Of a DNA stretch of 14,085 nt, positions 1 through 10,684 are shown piece by piece. Each line of letters starts with the position of its first letter. Positions within the stretch are counted from its first letter, which is position 1. Source of the DNA: Paracoccaceae bacterium (lineage in GTDB: Bacteria; Pseudomonadota; Alphaproteobacteria; Rhodobacterales; Rhodobacteraceae); the NCBI GenBank assembly GCA_007131945.1, contig SLPP01000215.1, forward strand, positions 1-14,085, given 5' to 3'. Made by a program: the position numbers and the translations under genes. The notes under the pieces are model-generated. The model saw nothing but the letters and a program-made list of their open reading frames with translations, made no database searches and had not been told where the DNA came from.

Positions 1-99
1 CCGCCGCGCAGGCGCGCGCCTGATCCGGCCGCCGCGCGTCCGCAGGGGAGTCCGCGGGTGTCTGTTTCCGGCTTGCGCCCGCCGCGAAAGGGCGCGGGA

Positions 100-175
100 C
101 GAAAGTTTCATTGTGGTTAACGAGAACGAATTATATAGGATAATCAATATATTGCCGGAGCGTCCACGCGTGGAC
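100..175 (+). repeat. Intergenic dyad element, copy 1
   Basis: Read on the plus strand this copy has GAAAGTTTC at 101-109, GGTTAACG at 115-122, an AT-rich stretch at 128-152, TTGCC at 152-156 and a perfect 14-nt palindrome GTCCACGCGTGGAC at 162-175. The same parts in the same order and spacing occur on the minus strand at 4405-4482 and 10607-10684. From the outer edge of the GTTAAC block to the palindrome centre is 46.5 nt in all three. It lies beyond the 3' end of the minus-strand FkbM gene, and whatever lies upstream is outside the window. It is clearly related to the other two copies but less similar in the AT-rich spacer. Its function is unknown. Confidence 0.7.
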
Positions 176-223
176 CTATCGCCGCGCGGCGCGCGTTCGG
201 GCCCATCTGGCGGGTCGCGCTTC

Positions 224-240
224 CGGGCGGTTCCCGCCCG
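224..240. other. Short GC hairpin downstream of the FkbM gene
   Basis: CGGGCGG at 224-230 pairs with CCGCCCG at 234-240 around a TTC loop, about 30 nt past the FkbM stop codon. No T-run follows on either strand, so it is at best a weak terminator or a 3'-end-stabilising hairpin. The rest of 1-269 contains only the dyad element and GC-rich sequence with no convincing gene. Confidence 0.25.
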
Positions 241-269
241 CGGCCCGTGGCTGTCGGCGCTGGATGCGG

Positions 270-1022
270 TCAGGCCGCGACGGCTTCGGGCGCCACGAGC
301 CGGGCGAAGATGTCGCCCGATGTCGCGTCCGCAGGCAGGCCGGCCAGCCATGCCCGCAGCGCCTCCGCCCCGCGCCAGTCGGGCCACAGGAAGCCCGCCG
401 CCTCGCCGACAACCACGTTGAAGCGATAGGGTCCGAGCGCGCAGAGCCGGTCGATCACCGCATGCGACAGCGCCGGGAAACCCGGCAGGTATTCCGCCGA
501 AATGATCTCGACCGGGACCGAGAGGCCGGCCAGCACCTCGATCTCGAACCCCTCGACGTCGATCTTGATGTAGCGCGGCACGCCCGCCTGCGCGATCAGC
601 CGGTCGAGCGTGGTCACCCGCACCCGCTGCCGCCGGTCCCAGCGCACATGGCCGAAGCCCGGCCTGGCGGCGGCTTCCTCGGGAAAGCGCGCGCTCAGCG
701 ACGAGACCGTCGGGTGGCGGGACGACAGCGCCATCTCCGCCTCGCTCTCCGCCGGGCCGGCCGCCGCCTCGTGCAGCGTGATGTCGCGCGGCAGGCTCGC
801 GCGCAGGAAGGACGCGAAGACCGGCTGGGGCTCCAGCGCGACAACGCGGGCGCCCGCCGCGCGCATCGCCCGCGACCGGTTGCCGACATGCGCGCCGATG
901 TCGAAGGCCAGATCGCCGGGTGCAAGAAGGCCGCGGTAGAAGCGCCGCATCTCGGCCAGCCGCGCCGGATGGTAATAGATGGCGAGCGACCGGAGCAGAC
1001 CGAGCCAGGGGGAGAGTCGCAC
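270..1022 (-). CDS. FkbM-family SAM-dependent methyltransferase
   Basis: Predicted cytoplasmic class I methyltransferase of the FkbM type, a family that O-methylates sugars or secondary metabolites. The substrate cannot be read from the sequence. With the start chosen here the protein has 250 residues. The SAM-binding motif I is FDIGAHVGN at residues 40-48, followed by the acidic strand ALEPQP at 62-67. The family hallmark TLDRL followed by YIKIDVEGFE lies at 138-160. The C-terminal SGDIFAR (235-241) resembles the end of other rhodobacterial FkbM proteins. I chose GTG at 1020-1022 because AAGGAG (complement of 1030-1035) lies 7 nt upstream. A longer open frame reaches 1145, but its extra N-terminus is low-complexity Arg/Pro sequence. 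The gene is divergent from the pterin-like operon, so a shared role is possible but unproven. Confidence 0.85.
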   Translation of the reverse strand: MRLSPWLGLLRSLAIYYHPARLAEMRRFYRGLLAPGDLAFDIGAHVGNRSRAMRAAGARVVALEPQPVFASFLRASLPRDITLHEAAAGPAESEAEMALSSRHPTVSSLSARFPEEAAARPGFGHVRWDRRQRVRVTTLDRLIAQAGVPRYIKIDVEGFEIEVLAGLSVPVEIISAEYLPGFPALSHAVIDRLCALGPYRFNVVVGEAAGFLWPDWRGAEALRAWLAGLPADATSGDIFARLVAPEAVAA

Positions 1023-1306
1023 GTGATTGCTCCTTGCCGCAGCGCAGGGACGGGATTGGCCTTCGGGAAAGATAGGACGCTTCGGCCCGGGTCCAGAGCG
1101 CTCGCGGCTTCCCGCCCATCTTCGGCGCGCGCGCCCCGGAGGCACTTGTCAGCCGCCGCCCGGCCCTATTTCATCGCACATGGTGGGCATCGACACGGCA
1201 ACGAACGAACCCCGCCCGGCCCGCATGACCTCGGCGCCGGGGGGTTGCCGTTGCCGCCCCGCGCCGGATCGGTGCATCGCTCGGCCAGGCACGCAGCCGG
1301 GACGCC
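1023..1306. promoter_or_regulatory. Divergent promoter region between the FkbM gene and the pterin-like operon
   Basis: These 284 nt contain no gene I can support and must hold the start signals for both flanking units. On the minus strand a possible -10 TATCTT (complement of 1069-1074) has CTGGAC 16 nt upstream as a poor -35 and is placed sensibly for the FkbM gene. I see no convincing promoter for the plus-strand operon. The Shine-Dalgarno sequence before its first ATG is also weak (GGGA a few bases upstream). Confidence 0.3.
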
Positions 1307-2251
1307 ATGACCGCTGACGCGCTCTGGTGCGTCGCGCCCGCGCGCGCCGAGATCCGCCCCGGCCGGATCGGCGAGGGCGTCGCCCTGCGCATGCTCTGCT
1401 CGGGGATAAGCCGTGGCACCGAGCGGATCGTCTTCGAGGGGCGGGTGCCCAAGGGCCAGGCCGAGCGCATGCGCGCGCCCTGGCAGGAAGGCGATTTCCC
1501 CTTCCCGGTAAAGTACGGCTATTGCGCCGTGGCCGAGATCGCCGAGGGCGCGGATGCCGGGCAGAGGGTCTTCGCGCTCTTCCCGCACCAGACGCGCTTC
1601 CGGCTGCCGGCGGAGGCACTGCTGCCGCTGCCCGCAGCGCTGCCCGCCGAGCGCGCGATCCTCGCGGCCAACATGGAGACCGCGCTGAACGTCCTCTGGG
1701 ACAGCGGCGCCGGCCCGGGCGATCGGATCGCGGTGATCGGCGCCGGCGTCATCGGCGCGCTCTGCGCTTATCTGGCCGCGCGCCTGCCCGGGGCCGAGGT
1801 TACCCTGAGCGACCGGCGTGCAACCCGCGCGGCGCTGGCCGATGCGCTCGGCTGCGGTTTCGCACCGCCCGATCGGCTTGAAGAGGGGGCGGACGTTGTC
1901 ATCCATGCCAGCGCGAGCGCCGAGGGGCTGGCCCGCGCGCTCGAGATCGCCGGCGACGGCGCCACCATCGTCGAGGCGAGCTGGCATGGCAACGCGCCGG
2001 TCCTGCTGCCGCTGGGCGGTGCCTTTCACAGCCGCCGGCTGCGTCTTGTCAGCTCGCAGGTCGGCGCCCTGCCGACGTCCCGCGCGCCGCGCTGGACGCA
2101 TCGCCGCCGCCTCGCCAAGGCGCTCGACCTGCTCACCGACCCGCGGCTCGACGCGCTCGTCTCCGGCGAGACGCCCTTCGCCGAACTGCCCGCCGCCTAC
2201 GGACGCATCCTGACCGACCCGGACACGCTGTGTCACCGGGTCCGCTACTGA
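1307..2251 (+). CDS. Medium-chain dehydrogenase/reductase (BchC-like, probably zinc-free)
   Basis: 314-residue NAD(P)-dependent oxidoreductase of the MDR superfamily. The N-terminal GroES-like catalytic domain (about 1-125) contains CSGISRGTE at 31-39 and MRAPWQEGDFPFPVKYGY at 55-72, a pattern I associate with the bacteriochlorophyllide dehydrogenase (BchC) branch. The Rossmann domain follows, with the dinucleotide motif IGAGVIG at 144-150 and an acidic strand end LSDR at 167-170. The usual zinc-ligand pattern of alcohol dehydrogenases is not seen: where GHE is expected the sequence reads KYGY, and the four-Cys structural zinc lobe is missing. The gene is the first of four plus-strand genes with short gaps, so it probably reduces or oxidises an intermediate of that pathway. 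The start is the first ATG of the frame, and the N-terminus aligns sensibly with the family. Confidence 0.82.
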   Translation: MTADALWCVAPARAEIRPGRIGEGVALRMLCSGISRGTERIVFEGRVPKGQAERMRAPWQEGDFPFPVKYGYCAVAEIAEGADAGQRVFALFPHQTRFRLPAEALLPLPAALPAERAILAANMETALNVLWDSGAGPGDRIAVIGAGVIGALCAYLAARLPGAEVTLSDRRATRAALADALGCGFAPPDRLEEGADVVIHASASAEGLARALEIAGDGATIVEASWHGNAPVLLPLGGAFHSRRLRLVSSQVGALPTSRAPRWTHRRRLAKALDLLTDPRLDALVSGETPFAELPAAYGRILTDPDTLCHRVRY

Positions 2252-2275
2252 ACCCTTCGCCCGAGAGGAAACCGC

Positions 2276-2671
2276 ATGTTCGCCGTCGAGGTCCGAGACC
2301 ATATCATGATCGCCCATTCGCTGCCCGCCGCCGTCTTCGGGCCGGCGCAGGGGATGCACGGCGCCACCTTCACGGTCGATGCCGCCTTCTTCACCGAGGA
2401 TCTCGACGCGCACGGGCTCGTCGTCGATATCGGGCTCGCGACCGAGGCGCTGGCCGCGGCGCTGGAGCCCTTGCGCTATCGCAACCTCGACGAGGTGCCG
2501 GAATTCGCCGGCAAGTTCACCACGACCGAATTCCTGTGTCGGCACATCCTCGACGCGCTGGCCGCGCGGATCGCCAGCGGGGCGCTGAACGATGCCGGGC
2601 GCATCAGGCGCCTGCGGATCAAGCTCCACGAAAGCCACGTCGCCCGCGCCTGGAACGAGCGCGAGATCTGA
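2276..2671 (+). CDS. 6-pyruvoyl-tetrahydropterin-synthase-fold protein lacking the catalytic triad
   Basis: 131-residue member of the PTPS/QueD (6-carboxytetrahydropterin synthase) superfamily, close to the usual 120-140 residues. Recognisable landmarks are AHSL with His14, MHGATF with His28, VVDIG at 49-53, NLDE at 70-73, TTTEF at 82-86 and LHESHVARAW at 117-126. By-eye alignment to QueD and mammalian PTPS shows striking losses. The catalytic Cys four residues before the first His of HGH is Ala24, the third zinc-ligand His of HGH is Ala30, and the Asp-His pair of LDH is Arg67-Tyr68. It probably does not catalyse the textbook reaction, though pterin binding may remain. GAGAGGA at 2263-2269 is the ribosome binding site. 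It lies 24 nt after the dehydrogenase gene and 3 nt before the methyltransferase gene. Confidence 0.85.
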   Translation: MFAVEVRDHIMIAHSLPAAVFGPAQGMHGATFTVDAAFFTEDLDAHGLVVDIGLATEALAAALEPLRYRNLDEVPEFAGKFTTTEFLCRHILDALAARIASGALNDAGRIRRLRIKLHESHVARAWNEREI

Positions 2672-2674
2672 GCG

Positions 2675-3466
2675 ATGGGGTTCTCGCCCGACTGGCTGGC
2701 CCTGCGCGAACCCGCCGACCGTGCCGCGCGAGACGGCGCGCTTCTGGCCGCGGCGGCGCGTGCGGCCGGCCCCGCGCCGGTGATCGTCGATATCGGGTGC
2801 GGTACCGGATCGATGCTGCGCGCGATGGGCGACCTGGTTGAGGACGGGGCGCGGTGGCGGCTGGTGGACAACGATCCCATTTTGCTTGCCGCCGCGGTCG
2901 CGGCGGCCGATGGCCAGGCCGAGGGCCATCTCCTGGACCTGGCTGATCTTGAGGCGCTGCCGCTCGACGGGGCCACCCTGGTCACGGCCTCGGCGCTACT
3001 CGACCTCGTATCTCACGACTGGCTTGCGCGGCTCGTCGCGCTTCTGGGGGAGAGGAAGGTGCCGCTTCATGCCGGGCTGAGCTATGATGGAAGGATGTTC
3101 TGGGATCCGCCGCACGTTTCCGATGCCGCGATTACCGAGGCGTTCAACCGGCACCAGCGCCGCGACAAGGGCCTTGGCCCCGCGCTCGGTCCCGACGCCG
3201 TCGACGCCGCCGCGGGACTTTTTCGCGCTCACGGCTTTGTCGTGCGGACGGCGTCGAGCCCCTGGCAACTCGACGCGGCGGACGCGGCGTTGCACAGTGA
3301 ACTGCTGCGGGGCGTCGCCGATGCCGCGGAAGAGGCCGGCGCGGACGATGCGCGCGGCTGGCTCGTCGATCGCCTTCAGGCGGTTTCGCGGACGCGCTGC
3401 CGGATTGGCCATGTCGATCTGCTGGCGCAGCTTCGCGCGCCGGGGCCAGAGGGAGGCCGAGCATGA
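2675..3466 (+). CDS. Class I SAM-dependent methyltransferase of the pterin-like operon
   Basis: 263-residue protein with a Rossmann-like SAM domain. Motif I is VIVDIGCGTG at residues 36-45, preceded by a helical N-terminus of about 35 residues typical of small-molecule methyltransferases. The acidic loop VDND lies at 64-67 and a motif-IV-like TASALLDLVSHDWL at 104-117. The C-terminal third is substrate-specific and I cannot assign it. It starts 3 nt after the PTPS-fold gene and overlaps the next gene by ATGA (3463-3466), so the three are almost certainly translated together. In that setting the likely substrate is a pterin or pyrimidine intermediate, which is inference. Methyltransferase plus RibD-type reductase also occurs in the toxoflavin pathway, but no specific homology is claimed. 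Confidence 0.85.
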   Translation: MGFSPDWLALREPADRAARDGALLAAAARAAGPAPVIVDIGCGTGSMLRAMGDLVEDGARWRLVDNDPILLAAAVAAADGQAEGHLLDLADLEALPLDGATLVTASALLDLVSHDWLARLVALLGERKVPLHAGLSYDGRMFWDPPHVSDAAITEAFNRHQRRDKGLGPALGPDAVDAAAGLFRAHGFVVRTASSPWQLDAADAALHSELLRGVADAAEEAGADDARGWLVDRLQAVSRTRCRIGHVDLLAQLRAPGPEGGRA

Positions 3467-4296
3467 TGTTGAACGTGGAAGTCACGCCTCGGATCTGGGA
3501 GCGCGTGCTCGCCATTCGCGCCGGGCTGGCCTGCGCCTGCTGCGGCGACTGGTCGGCCGGCGAACGCGGTGCGCTCGCCCTCTATGGTCCGCTGGCGCGG
3601 CGCGACCTGGGTCCGGTCACGATCGGCCAGATCGGCCAGTCGCTCGACGGTCGGGTCGCGACGGTGGCGGGCGATGCGCGCGACATCTCGGGACCGGACG
3701 GGTTGAAGCACCTGCACCGGCTGCGGGCACTGGTCGACGGCGTCGTCATCGGGGTGCGCACGGCTCTGCACGACACCCCGCGGCTGACCGTGCGGCTCTG
3801 CCCGGGCAGCAACCCGGCGCGGGTGATCATCGACCCGCAGGGTCGGCTGCCCGACGACGCGCCGGTCCTGCGGGCCGACGGCGCGCGTCGCATCGTGATC
3901 CAGAGCGTCGATCGGCCCCGTCCCGCGGGCGTCGAGGCGATCCGCCTGCCGGTGACCGGCGGCCGGATCGATCCGGTCACGATCGACACTGCGTTGCGTG
4001 GGGTGGGGCTATCTGCGCTGCTGATCGAAGGCGGGGCGATCACGCTGGCGAATTTCGTCGATGCCGGGCTGCTGACCCGGCTGCATGTGGCGGTCACGCC
4101 GCTGCTGATCGGCGGCGGGCCGCAGGGCTTCCACACGCGCGAGCCGGTCGCCCGGCTGTCCGACGCCCTGCGTCCCGAGGCGCAGGTCTTCGCGCTGGGC
4201 TCGGATATCCTGTTCGATTGCGCGCTGCGCGACGAGGCGAAACTGGCCCGCCTGCCGGTGCACCGTCCGGCGCGGGCCGCGCGGCGGGTCGTCTGA
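3463..4296 (+). CDS. Stand-alone RibD C-terminal (DHFR-like) reductase
   Basis: 277-residue protein whose residues about 50-255 form a RibD_C/dihydrofolate-reductase-like NADPH reductase. Landmarks are GQSLDGRVAT at 58-67, HRLRALVDGVVIG at 85-97, HDTPRLTVR at 103-111, RVIIDPQGRLP at 120-130, LLIEGGA at 186-192 and PLLIGGGPQGF at 213-223. In riboflavin synthesis this domain reduces the ribosyl side chain of the diaminopyrimidine made by GTP cyclohydrolase II. Here the N-terminal deaminase domain is absent (no HAE or PCxxC zinc motif). It is replaced by about 50 residues containing CACCGDW at 24-30. The start overlaps the methyltransferase stop (ATGA). GGGAGG at 3451-3456 serves ATG 3463, or possibly ATG 3466. 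A role in a dedicated pathway beside, rather than in, riboflavin synthesis is inferred from the neighbours. Confidence 0.85.
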   Translation: MMLNVEVTPRIWERVLAIRAGLACACCGDWSAGERGALALYGPLARRDLGPVTIGQIGQSLDGRVATVAGDARDISGPDGLKHLHRLRALVDGVVIGVRTALHDTPRLTVRLCPGSNPARVIIDPQGRLPDDAPVLRADGARRIVIQSVDRPRPAGVEAIRLPVTGGRIDPVTIDTALRGVGLSALLIEGGAITLANFVDAGLLTRLHVAVTPLLIGGGPQGFHTREPVARLSDALRPEAQVFALGSDILFDCALRDEAKLARLPVHRPARAARRVV

Positions 4297-4404
4297 TCAC
4301 GGTGGCAACACCGCCGGCTCCCGGGCCCGCCCCTTGCTGCCGCATCCGGGGCGCCGATCGCGCCGGTGGGGACCTCTGATCCGCGTCCGGGCACGCCGGC
4401 GTGG

Positions 4405-4482
4405 TGCTCAAATTTGAGCAGTTCGGCAAGAAATTGATGTAAAACAGAAATACGGCGCCGTTAACCACAGCGAAAGCTTTGG
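4405..4482 (-). repeat. Intergenic dyad element, copy 2
   Basis: Plus-strand landmarks are the perfect 16-nt palindrome TGCTCAAATTTGAGCA at 4405-4420, CGGCAAGA at 4424-4431, an A-rich spacer, CGTTAACC at 4459-4466 and CGAAAGCTTTGG at 4471-4482. It aligns without gaps to copy 3 with about 55 of 78 identical bases (counted by eye). The differences inside the palindrome keep its symmetry. It sits between the convergent ends of the RibD-like gene and xerD, in a 287-nt gap with no gene. A second 12-nt palindrome, CACGCCGGCGTG, lies just outside at 4392-4403. Confidence 0.75.
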
Positions 4483-4542
4483 CTGGAGGCGGGAAAAGCG
4501 GGTGCGGACCGACGGCATGACGCGAACGAGGGCCGAGATCCG

Positions 4543-4562
4543 GGTTGCTTCCTCGGGCAACC
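4543..4562 (-). terminator. Hairpin downstream of xerD, possible terminator
   Basis: GGTTGC (4543-4548) and GCAACC (4557-4562) can pair around an 8-nt loop, 21-41 nt beyond the xerD stop codon. No T-run follows on the minus strand, so intrinsic termination is uncertain. Confidence 0.25.
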
Positions 4563-4583
4563 GCGCGCGGCGTGGTCCGCTGG

Positions 4584-5528
4584 TCAGCCGCGCTCGCGCG
4601 CCAGAGGATGATGCGCCATGACCAGGGCGCGCAGGCGTTCGTCCAGCACATGCGTGTAGATCTCGGTCGATGACAGATCGGCATGGCCGAGAAGCAGCTG
4701 GATCACGCGCAGGTCGGCGCCGCCGGCGAGCAGATGCGTGGCGAAGGCATGGCGCAGCACGTGCGGGCTGACGCGGTCGGGCTCGATCCCGGCGCGGGCG
4801 GCAACCTCCTTGACCAGGGCGTGAAACCGCACCCGGCTCAGATGCCCCGCCGCGCCGCGCGCGGGAAAGAGGTATCTCGATGCCGGCCGCCCCGCCTTCC
4901 GGGCGGCGTCCTCGGCGCGGTCGCGATGCGCGAGCCAGACCGCGACCGCGGCGCGCGCGGCATCCGAGAGCGGCACCATCCGGTCCTTGCCGCCCTTGCC
5001 GCGTACGAGGATCATCTCGGGCGCACCGCGCAGTGCAGCATGCGGCAGGCCGACAAGTTCCGAGACCCTCAGCCCGGTCGCGTAGAGAAGTTCGAACAGG
5101 CAGGCATTGCGCGCGCGCGCCGCCGGATCGGGGCCGTGGTTGCGCGCGGCTTCGAGCAGCGCGGCGACCTCGGCCTCGGTGAGTGTGCCGGGCAGGCGCT
5201 GCGCCCGGCCCGGCCCGTCGATCCGCAGCGCCGGGTGGTCGCCGCGCCAGCCCTCGTCCATGGCAAATCGGTAGAAGCGCTTGAGCGCCGAGAGCCGCCG
5301 CGCCCGAGTCGCGCGCGACATGCCGGCGGCGTCGAGCGCGATCAGATAGGCCTCGACATGCTCGCGCCCGGCCTCGCCCAGATCGCTGCCGCGCGCGGCG
5401 AGCCAGGCCGAGGCATCGCGCAAATCGCGGCCATAGGCAAGGAGCGTGTTGCGCGCCGCGCCGCTCTCGGCCCCCATCGCCTCGAGGAAGGTGGCGATTC
5501 GGCGGGCGTCCTGCGCGGGCAGGTCCAC
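4584..5528 (-). CDS. xerD: Site-specific tyrosine recombinase XerD
   Basis: 314-residue tyrosine recombinase. With XerC it normally resolves chromosome dimers at dif near the replication terminus, under FtsK control. The N-terminal SAM-like core-binding domain spans about 1-105, with RNTLLAYGRDL at 26-36 and LKRFYRFAMDEG at 82-93. The catalytic domain carries Arg154 (TGLRVSEL), Lys178 (RGKGGKDR), His256 and Arg259 (SPHVLRH), His282 (LLGHADLSSTEIYTHV) and the nucleophile Tyr291. Their spacing matches E. coli XerD. The start is GTG at 5526-5528, three bases after the stop of the 526-residue protein, which suggests coupled translation. Nothing around it looks like a phage or island (no att-like direct repeats, no accessory genes), so the housekeeping recombinase is more likely than an integrase. 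XerC is the main alternative name. Confidence 0.9.
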   Translation of the reverse strand: MDLPAQDARRIATFLEAMGAESGAARNTLLAYGRDLRDASAWLAARGSDLGEAGREHVEAYLIALDAAGMSRATRARRLSALKRFYRFAMDEGWRGDHPALRIDGPGRAQRLPGTLTEAEVAALLEAARNHGPDPAARARNACLFELLYATGLRVSELVGLPHAALRGAPEMILVRGKGGKDRMVPLSDAARAAVAVWLAHRDRAEDAARKAGRPASRYLFPARGAAGHLSRVRFHALVKEVAARAGIEPDRVSPHVLRHAFATHLLAGGADLRVIQLLLGHADLSSTEIYTHVLDERLRALVMAHHPLARERG

Positions 5529-5531
5529 GGT

Positions 5532-7112
5532 TCAGCCCCGCCGGTCGAGCAGCAGCGCCTGCAACGCGGTCCGGCGGGCGATGTCCTCGAAACCCAGGTG
5601 GCGCAGCAGCACCAGCCCCTCGGCCAGCATCCGCGGATCGCTGCCGCTGCCGATCCGGTCGAGAACGCGCAGCACCTCCTCGCCGCGCCGACCCTCGGCG
5701 AGGCGCTCGGCGGCGCCGGCGGGCAGCTCGGGAGAGGGCGCGAAGGCTTCGGCCACCGCCGCCTCGATGGCGTCGCCGGGCAGGTCGGGATCGGGAGGCA
5801 GGCCGCGGGCGATCGCCGCCAGAAGCTCCGCCCGCGGCCCCGCGCCGGGGGCGGTGAGCGCGTGCACCTCGTAGGCGTCCGACAGATGGCCGATCGAGCG
5901 GGCGACCTCGGTCGCCGCGCCGTCGAGCGGGATGTCGCGCAGCCGTTCGGCAAAGAGCGCGACCAGCGCCATTTCCAGCTCGGCCGCTTCCATCTGCGTC
6001 CATGCCGCGACCAGCGCCGGCCCGATCGCGTCCGGATCGTCAAGCGCGAGCGCGGCCTCGAGGCGCTGAACCGCCCGCACCCGGTCCCAGATCCCGCCCG
6101 AGGCCGCCGCCGCGCGCTGGGTGTAGAGCCCCAGCAGCCGGTTCGGTGCCAGCGCGCCCGAGCGCACCAGCCGCTCGGCCGCCTCGATCTGCGCCCGCCA
6201 GCCGATCGTGCCGCGCAGATCGGCATGGGCGAAGGCGACCGGCAGGCCATGTGTCGACACCGGCTCGCCGATCGCCTCGAGCATGCGCCAGGCGAGCGGG
6301 CTGAGCTGCGCCGGCAGGCCGGTGAGCGGCACGATCGGGTCGGCATCGACATGGCCCTCGACCTCGAGGAAGCGCGCGATCAGCATGTCGTAGGGGGGTG
6401 GCAGGCCGCCTTCGCCCTCGACCGCGTCATGGGCAGCCTCGGCCGCCGGCCAGTCGCCGCTGCGGGCCAGGCAGTAGATCCGCGCCGCCTCGAAGGGGAA
6501 GGGTATCTCGCCGGTGAGCACGCGCCGACATACCGGCTCCTCGTCGCCGAGCAGAAGCGCGATCTCGAGCCAGCGCAGCTTCAGCCCGGCGTCGCGCGAA
6601 TCGAGCGTGTCGAGGAGCGCCAGCGCCTGGTCGAGCGCGCCGAAATCGTAGAGCTTGTCGATCCTCGCGGCGAGAAGCGGCGAGCCCTGCGCCGCGGGCG
6701 GGGCGCCGCGGGGCGCGTCGAACTCGGCGAGCAGCAACCGGTAGGCCAGCATGCGCAGCGCGGGCAGCGTGTCGAGCGGCAGCGCGGCGACGAGCGGTGC
6801 CAGCTCCTCGGCCGTGCTCGGCCCCCAGAAGTCGCGCGGCAGGCCGACACGCGCGGGCGGGAACAGGCCGACGGCATCGGGATTCACCCGGTCGAGCGGA
6901 CGCATCGTGATCGCGCCGTCGATCCAGGCGTCGCCGGTCGGCGGCGTGACCGGGTAGAGCTCGCCCGCGTCGGGCACGAGCAGCGTGTCCTGCAGCCATT
7001 CGATGGCGGCCAGCGGCGCCTCGGCGGCAAGCGGCGCGGCGCTCAGGCAGGCGATCAGGGCGCCCGCGAGGGCATCCCGTCCGTGCCTGACGACGCTCGC
7101 GCCACCGCCCAT
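5532..7112 (-). CDS. Exported helical protein of unknown function
   Basis: 526 residues; I do not recognise a characterised family. The N-terminus has a likely Sec signal peptide: basic residues to Arg12, hydrophobic ALAGALIACLSAAPLAA at 14-30 and probable cleavage near AA-EA at 30/31. The mature part is rich in Ala, Leu and Glu, with helical stretches such as LDQALALLDTLD and GDWPAAEAAHDAVEG, which look like degenerate TPR-type repeats. No catalytic motif or other membrane segment is evident. It begins 6 nt after the 54-residue membrane protein gene and ends 3 nt before xerD, so the three appear co-transcribed. I recall similar proteins beside xerD and aroK in other Rhodobacteraceae, which would point to a conserved envelope role, but that is memory, not a search. 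The long open frames on the opposite strand are shadows of its GC-biased codons. Confidence 0.8.
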   Translation of the reverse strand: MGGGASVVRHGRDALAGALIACLSAAPLAAEAPLAAIEWLQDTLLVPDAGELYPVTPPTGDAWIDGAITMRPLDRVNPDAVGLFPPARVGLPRDFWGPSTAEELAPLVAALPLDTLPALRMLAYRLLLAEFDAPRGAPPAAQGSPLLAARIDKLYDFGALDQALALLDTLDSRDAGLKLRWLEIALLLGDEEPVCRRVLTGEIPFPFEAARIYCLARSGDWPAAEAAHDAVEGEGGLPPPYDMLIARFLEVEGHVDADPIVPLTGLPAQLSPLAWRMLEAIGEPVSTHGLPVAFAHADLRGTIGWRAQIEAAERLVRSGALAPNRLLGLYTQRAAAASGGIWDRVRAVQRLEAALALDDPDAIGPALVAAWTQMEAAELEMALVALFAERLRDIPLDGAATEVARSIGHLSDAYEVHALTAPGAGPRAELLAAIARGLPPDPDLPGDAIEAAVAEAFAPSPELPAGAAERLAEGRRGEEVLRVLDRIGSGSDPRMLAEGLVLLRHLGFEDIARRTALQALLLDRRG

Positions 7113-7118
7113 CCCGGC

Positions 7119-7283
7119 CTATCCCGTGCCCAGGTCGACCGGCAGGCTGCGCGGCTCGGCCGGCATGTCGAGATCGCCGAAATAGGCGAAGGCCACGAAG
7201 CCCAGCCCGGCGATCAGCAGAAGCAGGATGAGCGCGCGGAACAGGTAGCCGAAAAAGCCGGGGCGGTCGTCGCGTCGGGGCAT
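7119..7283 (-). CDS. Small single-pass membrane protein (54 aa)
   Basis: Reading the complement from ATG at 7281-7283 to TAG at 7119-7121 gives 54 residues. There is a basic N-terminus (MPRRDDRPG), then one strong transmembrane segment at about residues 14-34 (LFRALILLLLIAGLGFVAFAY), then a short polar tail with MPAEPRSLPVDLG. Positive residues before the helix predict the N-terminus in the cytoplasm and the tail outside. AGAAGG lies about 11 nt upstream of the start. The gene ends 6 nt before the exported 526-residue protein, so they are probably co-transcribed and may act together at the envelope. Its small size means automatic callers could miss it. The function is unknown. Confidence 0.75.
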   Translation of the reverse strand: MPRRDDRPGFFGYLFRALILLLLIAGLGFVAFAYFGDLDMPAEPRSLPVDLGTG

Positions 7284-7408
7284 CGTGTGCTCGGGCCTTC
7301 TCTTGTCGGGTCGGGTCTGCGCCCCGCCACCGGGGCCGCCCGTGCCATTGTTGCGCGTTTTATATATGGTAGTCGCGGCAAGATCACGCCATTGAATGCG
7401 CGGATGAG
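7284..7408. promoter_or_regulatory. Divergent regulatory region, xerD operon and aroK-aroB
   Basis: The region separates the minus-strand small-membrane-protein operon from aroK. It contains a conspicuous AT island TTTTATATATGG at 7358-7369 in otherwise GC-rich DNA, a plausible -10 region for one or both directions. I cannot fit a good -35 hexamer at normal spacing on either strand, so the exact promoters are left open. Confidence 0.35.
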
Positions 7409-7439
7409 AAAAAACCTGCCCGGCCGTGACGGTCCGGGC
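7409..7439 (-). terminator. Intrinsic terminator pointing away from aroK
   Basis: GCCCGG plus CCG (7418-7426) pairs with CGG plus CCGGGC (7430-7439) around a TGA loop, with one bulged T at 7433. On the minus strand this nine-pair stem is followed after 3 nt by TTTTTT (complement of 7409-7414), the classic rho-independent layout. No minus-strand gene ends here. It could stop antisense transcription from aroK-aroB before it enters the small-membrane-protein operon, or act as an attenuator in a long leader of that operon. On the plus strand the same hairpin would sit in the aroK leader RNA. Confidence 0.55.
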
Positions 7440-7492
7440 GGGGCGGGGCGAGGGCGACAGACGGGAACAGCGGGCGCAGACAGCGGGCGGGA

Positions 7493-8044
7493 ATGGCGGC
7501 AGGCAGGCGCGGCAGGCTCAAAAAGACGGTGGTGATGGTCGGGATGATGGGTGCCGGCAAGACCGCCGTGGGGGGCGAACTGGCGCGCAGCCTCGGCGTG
7601 CCGTTCCTCGATTCGGATGCCGAGATCGAGCGCGCCGCCAATGCCACGATCGCCGAGATCTTCGCCCGCGACGGCGAGCCCTTCTTCCGCGCCAAGGAGG
7701 CGCAGGTCATCGCCCGGCTGCTGAAGGGTCCGCCGGGCGTGCTGTCGGTCGGCGGCGGGGCGTTCCTCAACCCCGAGACGCGGGCGCTGATCAGCGATCT
7801 CGGCGTCGCGGTCTGGCTGAAGGCCAGTCTCGATCTGCTGTGGAGCCGGGTGAAGCGCAAGGATACCCGCCCGCTCCTGCGCACGGCCGATCCGCGGCGC
7901 ACGCTGGCCGGGCTGATGGCGGCGCGAGAGCCCGCCTATGCGCAGGCCGACCTGATCGTCGAGGTCGCGCCGGAAGCCTCGATCGAGGAGACCGCCGCGC
8001 GCGTGCGCGCCGCGCTCGCCACCCGCCCCGATGTCCTGTCCTGA
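7493..8044 (+). CDS. aroK: Shikimate kinase
   Basis: 183-residue cytoplasmic kinase that phosphorylates shikimate with ATP in the chorismate pathway. The Walker A loop is GMMGAGKT at residues 17-24. The shikimate-binding DSD lies at 40-42, FFRAKE at 64-69 and GGGAF at 87-91. The lid contains RPLLR at 126-130, and the adenine-loop region has REPAYAQAD at 145-153. The length is normal for AroK. The ATG at 7493 is preceded by a GGCGGGA stretch lying very close to it; a slightly different start within the first ten residues is possible because the Arg-rich N-terminus is not conserved. Only 9 nt separate it from aroB, so the two consecutive shikimate-pathway enzymes form an operon. An aroK-aroB pair is common in proteobacteria. 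Confidence 0.95.
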   Translation: MAAGRRGRLKKTVVMVGMMGAGKTAVGGELARSLGVPFLDSDAEIERAANATIAEIFARDGEPFFRAKEAQVIARLLKGPPGVLSVGGGAFLNPETRALISDLGVAVWLKASLDLLWSRVKRKDTRPLLRTADPRRTLAGLMAAREPAYAQADLIVEVAPEASIEETAARVRAALATRPDVLS

Positions 8045-8053
8045 GGTGCCCCC

Positions 8054-9175
8054 GTGACCGACCGCCCCATCGACACCGTCGCCGTCACGCTCGGCCCGCG
8101 CAGCTACCGGGTGCGCATCGGTTCGGGGCTGATCGCCCGCGCCGGGGCCGAGATCGCGCCGCTGCTCCGGCGTCCGCGCGTCGCGGTCCTGACCGAGGAG
8201 CGGGTGGCGGCGCTGCATCTGCCCGCGCTCGAGGCCGGGCTCGCCGCCGAGGGGATCGCCCTGCAGGCGCTGGCGCTGCCGCCCGGGGAGGCGACGAAAA
8301 GCTGGGCGCAGCTTGCCCGCGCCGTCGAATGGCTGCTCGCCGCCGAGGTCGAGCGCGGCGATCTCGTCGTCGCCCTGGGCGGCGGCGTGATCGGCGATCT
8401 GGCGGGCTTTGCCGCCGCCATCCTGCGCCGCGGCGTGCGCTACGTGCAGGTCCCGACGACGCTGCTGGCGCAGGTCGACAGTTCGGTCGGCGGCAAGACC
8501 GGGATCAACACCGCGCAGGGCAAGAACCTCGTCGGTGCCTTCCACCAGCCAAGCCTCGTTCTGGCCGACATCGCGCTTCTCGACACGCTGCCCGAGCGCG
8601 ACTTCCTTGCCGGCTATGCCGAGGTGGTGAAATACGGGCTTCTGGGTGATGCCGCTTTTTTCGCCTGGCTCGAGGCGAACGGCCCGGCGCTCGCCGCCGG
8701 CGACCGGGCGCTGCGGCAGGAGGCGGTGCGCCGGTCGGTGGCGATGAAGGCGGGCATCGTCGCGCGCGACGAGCACGAGGCGGGCGAGCGCGCGCTGCTC
8801 AATCTCGGCCATACCTTCGGCCATGCACTGGAGGCGGCGACCGGCTATTCCGACCGGCTGCTGCATGGCGAGGGCGTGGCGATCGGCTGCCAGCTCGCCT
8901 TCGAGCTTTCCGCGCGCCTCGGGCTCTGCCCGCAGGAGGCGCCGAGCCGGCTGGCCGCGCATCTGGCCGCGATGGGGATGAAGCGCCGGCTTGCCGACAT
9001 CCCCGGCGCGCTGCCTGAAACGGGCGATCTGATCGCGCTCATGGCGCAGGACAAGAAGGTGATCGAGGGAAGGCTGCGCTTCGTCCTCGCCCGCGACATC
9101 GGTGCGGCCTTCGTCACCGATGCCGTGCCGCCCGAGGCGCTGCACGCGCTGCTCGACGCGGCGCGCGCGGCGTAG
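8054..9175 (+). CDS. aroB: 3-dehydroquinate synthase
   Basis: 373-residue NAD- and metal-dependent enzyme that converts DAHP to 3-dehydroquinate, the second step of the shikimate pathway. NAD-binding landmarks are PGEATKS at 77-83, GGGVIGDLAGF at 109-119 and PTTLLAQVDSSVGGKTGIN at 134-152. The metal ligands appear as Glu190 (GYAEVVKYG), His253 (LGHTFGHALE) and His271 (LLHGEGVAIG). Length and order match the family. The start is GTG at 8054, with GAGG overlapping the aroK stop as the ribosome binding site. The gene ends at TAG 9173-9175, and 49 nt later the tRNA-Gly gene comes from the opposite strand. No convincing terminator with a T-run is seen in that gap. Confidence 0.96.
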   Translation: MTDRPIDTVAVTLGPRSYRVRIGSGLIARAGAEIAPLLRRPRVAVLTEERVAALHLPALEAGLAAEGIALQALALPPGEATKSWAQLARAVEWLLAAEVERGDLVVALGGGVIGDLAGFAAAILRRGVRYVQVPTTLLAQVDSSVGGKTGINTAQGKNLVGAFHQPSLVLADIALLDTLPERDFLAGYAEVVKYGLLGDAAFFAWLEANGPALAAGDRALRQEAVRRSVAMKAGIVARDEHEAGERALLNLGHTFGHALEAATGYSDRLLHGEGVAIGCQLAFELSARLGLCPQEAPSRLAAHLAAMGMKRRLADIPGALPETGDLIALMAQDKKVIEGRLRFVLARDIGAAFVTDAVPPEALHALLDAARAA

Positions 9176-9224
9176 GGCGGTGTCACGCGCCCTGCAGCGC
9201 GCCTCGATCTGTCCGGAAGTGGTC

Positions 9225-9298
9225 TGGAGCGGGTAGCGGGAATCGAACCCGCGCGTTCAGCTTGGGAAGCTGACAGGCTACCATTACATCATACCCGC
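9225..9298 (-). tRNA. tRNA-Gly (anticodon CCC)
   Basis: The minus strand folds as a full cloverleaf. The acceptor is GCGGGTA (complement of 9292-9298) paired with TACCCGC (complement of 9229-9235), followed by discriminator T and an encoded CCA (complement of 9225-9227). The anticodon stem TCAGC/GCTGA encloses the loop TTCCCAA, giving anticodon CCC at 9264-9266, which reads the GGG glycine codon. The T-arm contains GGTTCGATTCC. Total length is 74 nt with CCA. Confidence 0.95.
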
Positions 9299-9307
9299 AT
9301 GAGCCGT

Positions 9308-9336
9308 CGTCTAGCGGCCGGCCCGATTCCCGTCAA
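9308..9336 (-). promoter_or_regulatory. Promoter of the tRNA-Gly gene
   Basis: On the minus strand TTGACG (complement of 9331-9336) is followed by exactly 17 nt and TAGACG (complement of 9308-9313). Nine bases then separate it from the mature tRNA 5' end. Both hexamers and the spacing fit a housekeeping sigma-70 promoter of alphaproteobacterial type. It lies in the 58-nt gap after the ssb stop codon, so the tRNA need not depend on ssb transcription. Confidence 0.7.
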
Positions 9337-9356
9337 GACGTGGCGATCAGAGGCGA

Positions 9357-9821
9357 TCAGAACGGGATCTCGTCGTCCATGTCGGCCGGGCCGCGGTCGA
9401 AGCCGCCGGAACGGTCGCCGTAGCCGCTGTCGCGCCCGCCCTGGTCGGAATAACCACCACCGCCCTCGCCGCGACCGTCGAGCATGGTGAGTTCGGAACG
9501 ATAGGGCCGAAGAGCGATCTCGGTCGTGTATCGGTCCTGGCCCGATTGGTCTTGCCACTTCCGCGTTTCGAGTTGACCTTCGAGATAGATCTTGGAGCCC
9601 TTCTTCAGAAACCGCTCGGCGACATTGACCAGCGGTTCCGAATAGATCGCCACCCGGTGCCATTCGGTCCTCTCGCGCCGCTCGCCGGTCTGTTTGTCGC
9701 GCCAGGTCTCCGAGGTCGCGATGCGCAGGTTGCAGACCTTGCCGCCACTCGGGAAACTCCGCACCTCGGGGTCGGCGCCGAGATTGCCGATGAGAATGAC
9801 CTTGTTGACCGAACCTGCCAT
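9357..9821 (-). CDS. ssb: Single-stranded DNA-binding protein
   Basis: 154-residue SSB, the essential homotetramer that coats single-stranded DNA in replication, repair and recombination. The OB-fold spans about residues 4-113: [16 protein letters not shown] at 6-21, [11 protein letters not shown] at 52-62 and [17 protein letters not shown] at 74-90. Trp40, Trp54 and Trp89, with Tyr60, fall at or next to the ssDNA-stacking positions of E. coli SSB. A Gly/Asp/Ser-rich disordered linker follows, ending in the acidic protein-interaction tip DMDDEIPF. I chose ATG at 9819-9821 because GGGAG lies 6 nt upstream and MAGSVNKV matches the family start; a longer frame to 9845 adds eight unlikely residues. 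The gene is divergent from the lytic transglycosylase. I found no GTTC-N7-GTTC SOS box upstream. Confidence 0.96.
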
Positions 9822-9994
9822 GCCGCTCTCCCGTCGAATCTGCACTCGCCCTCCGGTAGCACGACTGCGCCGCGCGGGACAGGGGAAACGGCCGGCTTGC
9901 CTTGCGCGGTGATTCCGGTCACAAGAAGAGAGGAACGCGCGGCCGCCGGCCCGGGCCGGATCGTGCGCGCGGGACAGTTGCGGGGGGTTGCCGG

Positions 9995-10594
9995 ATGCGT
10001 TCGCTCATCGCCATGCTCGCCGTCGGCCTGGGGACGATGGCCTTCAGCGAACCGACCGCGGCGAGCGGTCTGCGCCTCGGCGGAGCGGCGTCGTCCGATG
10101 CGGTGGCGCGCAACCAGACCCGGCTGATGGAGACGCGGCTCTCGAGGCAGTACTCGGCCTCGGACCGGCATTTGCCGAACCTGCCGCAGCCGGTCGATGC
10201 CCGTGCGCCGCGGTATTCCGGGCCCAATCCCGGCGCCTATCTCGACATGGCCCGCGCCGCCGCGCGCCGGCACAACGTGCCCGAGGACCTGTTCCTGCGG
10301 CTCGTCCACCAGGAGAGCCGCTGGAATTCGGCGGCGGTCTCGCCCAAGGGGGCGCGGGGGCTGGCGCAGCTGATGCCCGACACGGCGCGGCTCCTGCGCG
10401 TCGATCCCGACGATCCGCGCCAGAACCTCGAGGGCGGGGCGCGGTATCTGCGGATGATGTACGACCGCTTCGGCAACTGGCGGCTGGCGCTGGCGGCCTA
10501 CAATGCCGGCCCCGAGGCGGTCGAGCGTCACGGCGGCGTGCCGCCCTTCGCCGAGACGACGCAATACGTGCGGGTAATCCTCGGCTCGGGCTGA
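9995..10594 (+). CDS. Small exported lytic transglycosylase (SLT domain)
   Basis: 199-residue protein with an N-terminal signal peptide ([14 protein letters not shown] at 4-17, likely cleavage in the Ala-rich stretch around 22-24). An unstructured linker reaches about residue 78, and a Slt/MltE-type transglycosylase domain spans about 80-195. The catalytic Glu107 lies in HQESRWN. The motifs [16 protein letters not shown] at 119-134, NLEGGARYL at 144-152 and [13 protein letters not shown] at 165-177 follow in family order. Such enzymes cleave the MurNAc-GlcNAc bond of peptidoglycan in the periplasm, forming 1,6-anhydro-MurNAc. The ATG at 9995 is chosen because it creates the signal peptide and follows a G-rich ribosome-binding stretch at about 9981-9986; a frame open from 9902 adds an Arg-rich non-conserved leader. 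The partner process (division, secretion or recycling) cannot be told. Confidence 0.9.
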
Positions 10595-10606
10595 ACGGCG
10601 GTTGCG

Positions 10607-10684
10607 CGTCCAAATTCGGACACTTTGGCAAGATCCTGACATAAAATGAAAATCCGCCGCCGTTAACCGCAACGAAACTTTCGG
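10607..10684 (-). repeat. Intergenic dyad element, copy 3
   Basis: Plus-strand landmarks are the imperfect palindrome GTCCAAATTCGGAC at 10608-10621, TGGCAAGA at 10625-10632, a spacer with ATAAAATGAAAAT at 10641-10653, CGTTAACC at 10661-10668 and GAAACTTTC at 10674-10682. It aligns without gaps to copy 2. It nearly fills the 96-nt gap between two converging genes, starting 13 nt after the transglycosylase stop and ending 6 nt from the AraC-regulator stop. Any RNA made across it from either gene would include the structure. Confidence 0.75.

What the first reader, a model, noticed from the sequence alone, without database searches (positions are those of the whole stretch)
100..10684. Three-copy composite dyad element with invariant internal spacing
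Copies at 100-175 (plus), 4405-4482 and 10607-10684 (minus) share a GAAA/TTTC dyad, a GTTAAC core flanked by conserved bases, an AT-rich spacer, TTGCC and a terminal palindrome. The distance from the GTTAAC block to the palindrome centre is 46.5 nt in all three. The palindrome sequences differ (GTCCACGCGTGGAC, TGCTCAAATTTGAGCA, GTCC-N6-GGAC) but each keeps dyad symmetry, the signature of a selected DNA site or RNA hairpin. Three copies in 14 kb suggests many per genome. Possible roles are a nucleoid-protein or regulator site, a bidirectional 3'-end processing or termination element, a small RNA family, or a passive repeat.
Basis: seen in the sequence. Interest (0 to 1): 0.78.

Follow-up and report, generated by a model that had tools for sequence, protein, structure and literature searches.

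The report
Composite IHF-palindrome sites at gene ends
The three repeats are copies of an 80-base DNA site present about 150 times in this bacterium, mostly just after a gene ends; it combines a likely docking site for the DNA-bending protein IHF with a mirror-symmetric sequence whose letters differ between lineages, which points to an undescribed DNA-binding system.

Summary
The element is a sharply bounded block of about 80 bp: TTTC-N7-TTAA head, AT-rich stretch, a match to the IHF consensus, and a 16-bp palindrome without a loop.

The palindrome is a DNA feature, not an RNA hairpin: among 195 copies with 85 palindromes the arms covary into the centre, no G-U preference appears, and four RNA folds are no better than shuffles. 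In better-sampled genomes of other genera the palindrome is nearly uniform but genome-specific. In three of them a third half-site, matching the local palindrome, lies 42 bp upstream across the IHF site. A gene's 3' end faces the palindrome in 132 of 148 Pararhodobacter and 59 of 79 other cases. The element is patchy: in quantity in 3 of 18 genus members; a match in 32 of 394 family genomes.

Best reading: an IHF-bent protein complex marking gene ends, resembling E. coli RIB/BIME-1 but of other sequence. The palindrome-binding protein and the function are unknown.

The parts
99..182 (+). Element copy 1 (84-column unit; palindrome faces the 3' end of the FkbM-type methyltransferase gene that ends at 270)
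   Evidence: (72.3 bits)
106..120 (+). Head of copy 1: TTTC-N7-TTAA direct repeat, resembling a CtrA full site TTAA-N7-TTAA
   Evidence: sequence; consensus from passages of PMC6180460; block conserved
142..154 (+). IHF-consensus match of copy 1 (AATCAATATATTG)
   Evidence: sequence; WATCAANNNNTTR from passages of PMC10380432 and PMC3281130
161..176 (+). Palindrome of copy 1 (CGTCCACGCGTGGACC; inner 14 bp perfect)
4399..4482 (-). Element copy 2, between a RibD_C-domain gene (ends 4296, +) and a gene on - that ends at 4584
   Evidence: (83.3 bits)
4461..4475 (-). Head of copy 2: TTTC-N7-TTAA
   Evidence: sequence
4427..4439 (-). IHF-consensus match of copy 2 (CATCAATTTCTTG)
   Evidence: sequence
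4405..4420 (-). Palindrome of copy 2 (TGCTCAAATTTGAGCA, perfect)
10601..10684 (-). Element copy 3, between a lytic-transglycosylase-like gene (ends 10594, +) and an AraC-type regulator gene (ends 10691, -)
   Evidence: (81.8 bits)
10663..10677 (-). Head of copy 3: TTTC-N7-TTAA
   Evidence: sequence
10629..10641 (-). IHF-consensus match of copy 3 (TGTCAGGATCTTG)
   Evidence: sequence
10607..10622 (-). Palindrome of copy 3 (TGTCCGAATTTGGACG; two of eight pairs are not Watson-Crick)

Best explanation
Each copy is a composite protein-binding site in double-stranded DNA. IHF binds the WATCARNNNNTTG core and bends the DNA sharply. A symmetric, probably dimeric, lineage-specific protein (unidentified) binds the palindrome. 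An OmpR/CtrA-type regulator, or something with the same 11-bp repeat, binds the TTTC-N7-TTAA head, which the bend brings back toward the palindrome. In three other genera the palindrome protein also contacts a third half-site 42 bp (four helical turns) upstream. The complex sits at the 3' ends of genes, mostly between convergent genes, and most likely insulates them: it separates converging transcription or its supercoils and anchors the chromosome, much as one may suppose for E. coli RIB/BIME-1 elements. Shown: anatomy, DNA-level symmetry, lineage dialects, third half-site, 3'-end placement and patchy distribution. Inferred: IHF binding (from consensus), the protein dimer, the head-binding regulator and the insulating role.
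For: Copy number. Gap-free alignment A1, chosen without regard to the palindrome; its CA at the IHF contact position is 31 of 32 and was not in the seed pattern (TTGCC was in it, so TTG is partly selected). Palindrome pairs 2, 3, 5 and 6 from the centre are Watson-Crick in 190, 189, 181 and 186 of 195 copies against 96, 103, 59 and 96 expected with independent arms; centre pair 158 against 82. The six variable palindrome pairs are the six strongest couplings of all column pairs in 160 copies. 113 of 195 perfect palindromes against a mean of 6 after re-dealing arms. A 22-bp palindrome has 48 places in G135 (<=3 mismatches), reversed control 0. Third half-site at 42 bp with at least 6 of 8 bases: 24 of 25, 6 of 12 and 4 of 4 copies in G135, G082, G340. 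TTAA-like box at 28-30 or 40-41 bp from the IHF CA, about one helical turn apart. Right-hand gene points in: 132 of 148 and 59 of 79. Nine of nine close pairs (<100 bp) in G000 have palindromes outward.
Against: No binding data. The palindrome protein was not identified. In Pararhodobacter 85 palindromes coexist in three genomes, hard for a single sequence-specific dimer, because nothing in dimer binding requires both arms to change together; a mutational process that restores symmetry, or several paralogues, could contribute. The third half-site shows no peak in Pararhodobacter (160 copies) nor in ten other genera, which however were sampled by only 2-9 copies each; G260 has it in 1 of 2. Two thinly sampled genomes, G394 and G057, each gave two different palindromes, against uniformity. 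The head is not a strict CtrA site (first half TTTC). No transcription data bear on the insulating role.
Confidence: 0.5

Rival explanations
1. RNA element: the palindrome is a hairpin at the 3' end of mRNAs (terminator, stabiliser or small RNA).
For: Sits close after stop codons (median 38 bp in Pararhodobacter, 10 bp in G135); arms covary; the head carries GC-rich sequence plus a T-run read as a terminator in the other direction in 39 of 160 copies (five column-shuffled controls 18-32).
Against: Pairing extends to positions that a hairpin loop cannot pair (pair 2: 190 of 195; centre 158 of 195); no excess of G-U on either strand; folding z-scores -0.76, 0.14, 0.19, -1.10 for four copies; no U-run after the palindrome in gene direction; terminators in convergent ends facing it 10 of 101, no different from 5 of 52 without an element; the third half-site matches as DNA across an IHF site.
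Confidence: 0.08
2. Passive or formerly mobile repeat (MITE, REP/RAYT-like) that accumulates at gene ends because insertion there is harmless; conserved parts are transposase signals.
For: Patchy distribution within one genus and family; positions hardly shared between genera (one palindrome-side and two mixed-side protein matches of G000 with G135 and G082); IHF sites occur in some transposable elements (passage of PMC3281130).
Against: No near-identical copies: best pair 82% in G000 and G010, 84% in G135, over the 62 positions before the palindrome. Sites persist at orthologous places while symmetry is mostly kept (21 pairs, 0 identical palindromes). RAYT family PF01797 is found in 3 of 29 genomes: 2 of 11 carriers (G010, G081) and 1 of 18 others. 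No autonomous copy was seen, but none was systematically sought.
Confidence: 0.17
3. Attachment-like site of a site-specific recombinase: direct-repeat arm sites, IHF bend, inverted core, as in the P' arm of lambda attP (recalled).
For: Order of parts matches: 11-bp direct repeats, IHF site, inverted core; close pairs are arm-to-arm with cores outward.
Against: Some orthologous loci align across or on both sides of the element without a cassette (L078/L007, L080/L065, L087/L137), not tested exhaustively; no recombinase correlate was looked for; about 150 active att sites would be expected to destabilise a genome (inference).
Confidence: 0.08
4. Chromosome-scale marker read by a segregation, nucleoid-occlusion or replication protein (like Noc, SlmA or MatP sites, recalled), the gene-end position being only tolerance.
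For: Copy numbers of 3-29 (10 genomes), 48 and about 150 per genome; palindromic sites; dialects as expected for a co-evolving protein.
Against: The 11 listed sites of G118 (of 12) run from 20 kb to 4.29 Mb of one contig, and orientation is mixed on G010, G340 and G354 contigs (no formal test); the strict orientation towards gene 3' ends is unexplained by such a role.
Confidence: 0.13

Closest known systems
E. coli RIB / BIME-1 (repetitive elements at 3' ends of transcription units that interact with IHF; passage and reference-list entry seen in PMC2817692)
   Same: IHF site combined with palindromes, many copies, extragenic, at 3' ends
   Different: One palindrome per unit rather than two oppositely oriented REPs; palindrome arms covary and differ by lineage; extra TTRA-N7-TTAA block and, in three genera, a third half-site at 42 bp
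Neisserial Correia/NEMIS elements (passages of PMC2229807)
   Same: Short intergenic repeats with an IHF site
   Different: Those are MITEs; no terminal inverted repeats seen here, and copies are old and divergent
DNA uptake sequence dialects of Neisseriaceae (search listing only)
   Same: Genome-wide short motif with lineage-specific dialects read by a co-evolving protein
   Different: No IHF core or composite anatomy recalled for DUS; no uptake evidence here
CtrA full site TTAA-N7-TTAA (passages of PMC6180460)
   Same: Two half-boxes 11 bp apart in the head
   Different: First half is TTTC in Pararhodobacter; placed at gene ends, not promoters

Membership tests
RIB / BIME-1 | IHF-binding sequence | tested here: inconclusive
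   Consensus WATCARNNNNTTG met in anatomy; binding not testable
RIB / BIME-1 | Located at 3' ends of transcription units | tested here: met
   Palindrome-side gene points in: 132 of 148 (Pararhodobacter copies with the common spacing), 59 of 79 (14 other genomes)
RIB / BIME-1 | Two oppositely oriented REP palindromes flanking the IHF site | tested here: not met
   One palindrome per unit; conserved block ends at the head; only some copies lie in pairs
REP/RAYT system | Y1 transposase (PF01797) in the genome | tested here: not met
   2 of 11 carriers and 1 of 18 other genomes; absent in G000, G008, G135, G082, G300
Intrinsic terminator | GC hairpin followed by a U-run in the direction of the facing gene | tested here: not met
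   Inside the element, read from the facing gene, in 1 of 101 convergent and 2 of 32 tandem cases
Structured RNA family | Match to an Rfam family | tested here: not met
   At gathering thresholds only a tRNA at 9228-9298 in the window
MITE | Terminal inverted repeats, recent near-identical copies | tested here: not met
   Sharp block without inverted ends; best pair 82-84% identical
CtrA-regulated site | TTAA-N7-TTAA | tested here: inconclusive
   TTTC-N7-TTAA in Pararhodobacter; exact TTAA-N7-TTAA seen in one G260 copy; binding not testable
Caulobacter CerM-associated intergenic repeats | GANTC methylation site in the repeat | not tested
   No count made
Integrase attachment site | Cognate recombinase and strand exchange at the core | not testable with these tools
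   Only the order of parts agrees

The most novel reading that the evidence does not exclude
A previously undescribed chromosome-wide protein-DNA system of Rhodobacteraceae: a fast-evolving DNA-binding protein and from a few to about 150 cognate composite sites per genome, at gene 3' ends, in lineage-specific dialects, assembled around an IHF bend with palindrome and (in some genera) a third half-site locked at four helical turns; within Pararhodobacter the sites diversify while most keep strict two-fold symmetry.
Probability: 0.45. Interest if true: 0.85.

Novelty: new variant of a known kind. Interest (0 to 1): 0.72.

Why it matters
IHF-containing repeats at gene 3' ends are known from enterobacteria, but why they exist is, to my knowledge, open. 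An alphaproteobacterial family of other sequence with the same placement, in which the partner's specificity appears to have changed between genera and which is present or absent within one genus, is a natural experiment. It allows the partner to be sought by comparing carriers with non-carriers, and the role of 3'-end nucleoprotein complexes in convergent transcription, supercoiling or chromosome folding to be tested. The within-genome covariation without a loop is also unusual and asks for a mechanism.

Tried and rejected
RAYT association: PF01797 in 3 of 29 genomes, 2 of them among 11 carriers. Terminator replacement: an early contrast (facing genes 4 of 42 with a canonical terminator, head-side genes 10 of 26) did not hold. 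With more gene ends, convergent ends facing the palindrome have one in 10 of 101, ends without an element in 5 of 52, head-side ends in 32 of 78, of which 24 come from GC-plus-T sequence inside the head; I withdrew it. Non-carriers G001 and G017 had 6 of 20 and 8 of 32 convergent ends with a terminator, higher than in carriers; not followed up. Hairpin in the head and GAAA/TTTC dyad: no convincing covariation (of five head pairs one at p 0.04). Trans factor sought among genes starting just beyond palindromes: mostly housekeeping-like by eye. Low-copy genomes as possible homes of the factor: no recurrent candidate (judged from the first 70 residues of each predicted protein, no family search). 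Plasmid records: only weak partial matches for a 38-nt element query, matches to genes for one locus, none for another. Viral contigs: one exact pattern, none. Replichore orientation in G118: the 11 listed sites (of 12) form two blocks, about 5% by chance on my reckoning; dropped. Literature: searches (descriptive terms and palindrome strings; open-licence library only) listed no paper that describes this element by title or abstract; subscription papers were not searchable.

Biases to know: A2 holds 43 of 47 candidate rows (L248, L255, L225, L177 left out; G300 rows dropped for a different spacing) and was chosen requiring at least 7 of 8 symmetric pairs, so its pair count is not independent evidence; A1 was chosen without looking at the palindrome, and the 195 copies were scored column by column without pairing, though many of their loci were first found with R1, which contains pairs. 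The sets of other genera required at least 6 of 8 pairs. Part of the G135 copies were found with the palindrome itself; the others came from R1 matches. Searches used only the 160 copies with the common spacing, of 195. Gene calls are from my own codon-usage script, not an annotation. G010 windows were chosen around known copies. Ortholog pairs L178-L030 and L070-L188 rest on matches of 149-175 bp. An earlier count gave 43 of 45 for the G010 windows; one search shows 42 of 46.
Full report
Observation. The three copies exist as stated. The window is contig C70 of a 3.29-Mb, 417-contig, 92% complete genome. One relative with the element, G010, has a contig of the same length as a record titled Pararhodobacter sp. 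SW119 (145,087 bp) and a match at the same coordinates, so I take the genus to be Pararhodobacter. GGTTAAC-N30-TTGCC occurs 24 times exactly and 195 times with up to two mismatches, against 52 for the reversed pattern. A strict pattern over the genome collection found two stretches: one in SW119 and one in Dyadobacter that scores only 20.6 bits.

Anatomy. In element orientation: (N)AAASNTTTC, RTTGY, GGTTAACG, a variable stretch, an AT-rich stretch, WTCARNNNNTTGCC, a short purine-rich linker and a 16-bp palindrome. The information profile of 157 copies rises at -43 and ends at about +36 relative to the IHF core, flat outside. The core matches the IHF consensus WATCAANNNNTTR (passages); CA is 31 of 32 in A1 and was not in the seed pattern, whereas TTGCC was. 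The head holds two half-boxes 11 bp apart, TTTC-N7-TTAA; other genera show forms such as TTGA-N7-TTGA, TTGA-N7-TTAA or, in one G260 copy, TTAA-N7-TTAA, the form of a CtrA full site (passages of PMC6180460). The distance from a TTAA-like box to the IHF CA is 28 in 117 of 160 Pararhodobacter copies, and 29-30 or 40-41 where found elsewhere, about one helical turn apart; in G081, G375, G300 and G385 the search found no such box.

Palindrome. In 195 copies with 85 distinct palindromes, the variable pairs 2, 3, 5 and 6 from the centre are Watson-Crick in 190, 189, 181 and 186 copies; expected with independent arms 96, 103, 59 and 96. The centre pair is Watson-Crick in 158 (82 expected) and the outermost in 158 (79 expected). 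Re-dealing the arms among copies gives 6 perfect palindromes on average against 113 observed. These six pairs are the six strongest couplings of all columns; nothing convincing supports the GAAA/TTTC dyad or a hairpin in the head. Because the symmetry runs through positions that cannot pair in a hairpin, mismatches show no G-U preference, and RNA folding of four copies is no better than shuffles, the constraint is on double-stranded DNA. In a table of six outer and three inner half-site words 17 of 18 combinations occur, but not independently (chi-square p 0.001); copies with the 14-base spacer prefer other centres (15 of 34 against 10 of 160). This leaves room for more than one site type.

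Orthologous loci. Of 21 pairs of elements at corresponding places and orientation between G000, G008 and G010, none has the same palindrome, yet most keep full or near-full symmetry. Matching DNA in these loci is about 77-90% identical. Between genera positions are hardly shared: among 18 and 6 palindrome-side proteins of G135 and G082 against 104 of G000, one match, plus two between opposite sides; G000 and G010 share 11 palindrome-side proteins. No two copies in a genome exceed 82-84% identity before the palindrome (106 G000, 45 G010, 25 G135 copies).

Other genera. Model R1 finds the element in quantity in 3 of 18 genus members (G000 150, G010 150, G008 80); G002, G007 and G016 have one marginal match each. 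Model R2 (IHF plus palindrome half, A2) finds the same three (140, 145, 73), three places in G007, and none in 14. In a sample of 394 family genomes 32 have a match at E<=0.01, 15 (own genome included) with five or more; of 385 class genomes only the own genome and one weak match. In better-sampled genomes elsewhere the palindrome is nearly uniform: 25 of 25 TGTGCACATGTGCACA in G135, where the 22-bp version has 48 places and none for the reversed control; CGTCCAC(A/G)(C/T)GTGGACG in 12 of 12 in G082; CGTCCCCATGGGGAC(G/A) in 4 of 4 in G340; forms of TTTTCACGCGTGAAAA in G108, G299, G354, G402 (3-5 copies each). In G300 the arms CGTTCA...TGAACG are fixed and the centre is free. Against uniformity, G394 and G057 each gave two different palindromes in two copies.

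Third half-site. Scanning offsets of 20-87 bp, the left half of the palindrome recurs exactly 42 bp upstream (start to start) in 24 of 25, 6 of 12 and 4 of 4 copies (at least 6 of 8 bases) in G135, G082 and G340; in G082 and G340 the direct orientation is clearly the better one (in G135 the half-site is itself symmetric). It follows each genus's own palindrome. One of two copies in G260 has it; ten further genera (2-9 copies each, too few to exclude it) and Pararhodobacter (160 copies) show no such peak. This is what a sequence-specific protein contacting three half-sites around an IHF bend would leave behind, and neither an RNA hairpin nor drift predicts it.

Gene context. In Pararhodobacter the gene beyond the palindrome points towards it in 132 of 148 cases with a call (160 copies), median 38 bp from the stop; in 14 other genomes in 59 of 79, in G135 mostly 2-29 bp from the stop. 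Nine of nine close pairs in G000 have palindromes outward. In the window all three palindromes face gene ends (270, 4296, 10594), and the two copies whose head side is visible lie between convergent genes. Perfect palindromes with arms of 7 or more are in 0 of 16 convergent intervals of G017 and 2 of 10 of G001 (of other sequence), against 31 of 43 in the chosen G010 windows.

Mechanism. I commit to a composite nucleoprotein site (palindrome protein, IHF bend, head-binding regulator) at gene ends, working like RIB/BIME-1 to insulate converging genes or organise the chromosome. The site being a DNA-protein site I hold at about 0.9, IHF at about 0.85, the insulating role at about 0.4. The oddest result, many palindromes within one clade that mostly stay symmetric, is not explained by a single dimer; a degenerate specificity combined with mutational restoration of symmetry, or several paralogues, are possible and untested.

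Known kinds. It works like RIB/BIME-1 but does not show its two-REP structure, and it does not look like a RAYT-served REP, an intrinsic terminator for the facing gene, an Rfam family or a recent MITE. I found no description in the searches listed.

Noticed in passing
all Pararhodobacter copies: Two subclasses: the 14-base spacer goes with centres GCTGGC, GCCAGC, GCTAGC, AAGCTT (15 of 34 against 10 of 160; Fisher p 2e-7).
   Followed up: partly
element heads, about columns 15-36: GC-rich sequence followed by a T-run reads as a weak terminator for the head-side gene in 39 of 160 copies (column-shuffled controls 18-32), without convincing covariation.
   Followed up: partly
G007 (L071): A genus member outside the carrier group has three R2 matches; the one read has TGTCCACGCGTGGACA between convergent genes, perhaps a remnant.
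   Followed up: no
G118, single contig: Orientation of the 11 listed elements forms two blocks along the chromosome; possibly chance.
   Followed up: partly
G135:C335:5953-6310: Two palindrome copies at the edges of runs of N, probably an assembly gap.
   Followed up: no
window 4584-5528 (-): Gene next to the head of copy 2 reads by eye like a tyrosine recombinase of the XerD type (from the start of the translation, no family search); an aroB gene is at 8054-9175.
   Followed up: no
window 9228-9298 (-): tRNA gene.
   Followed up: no
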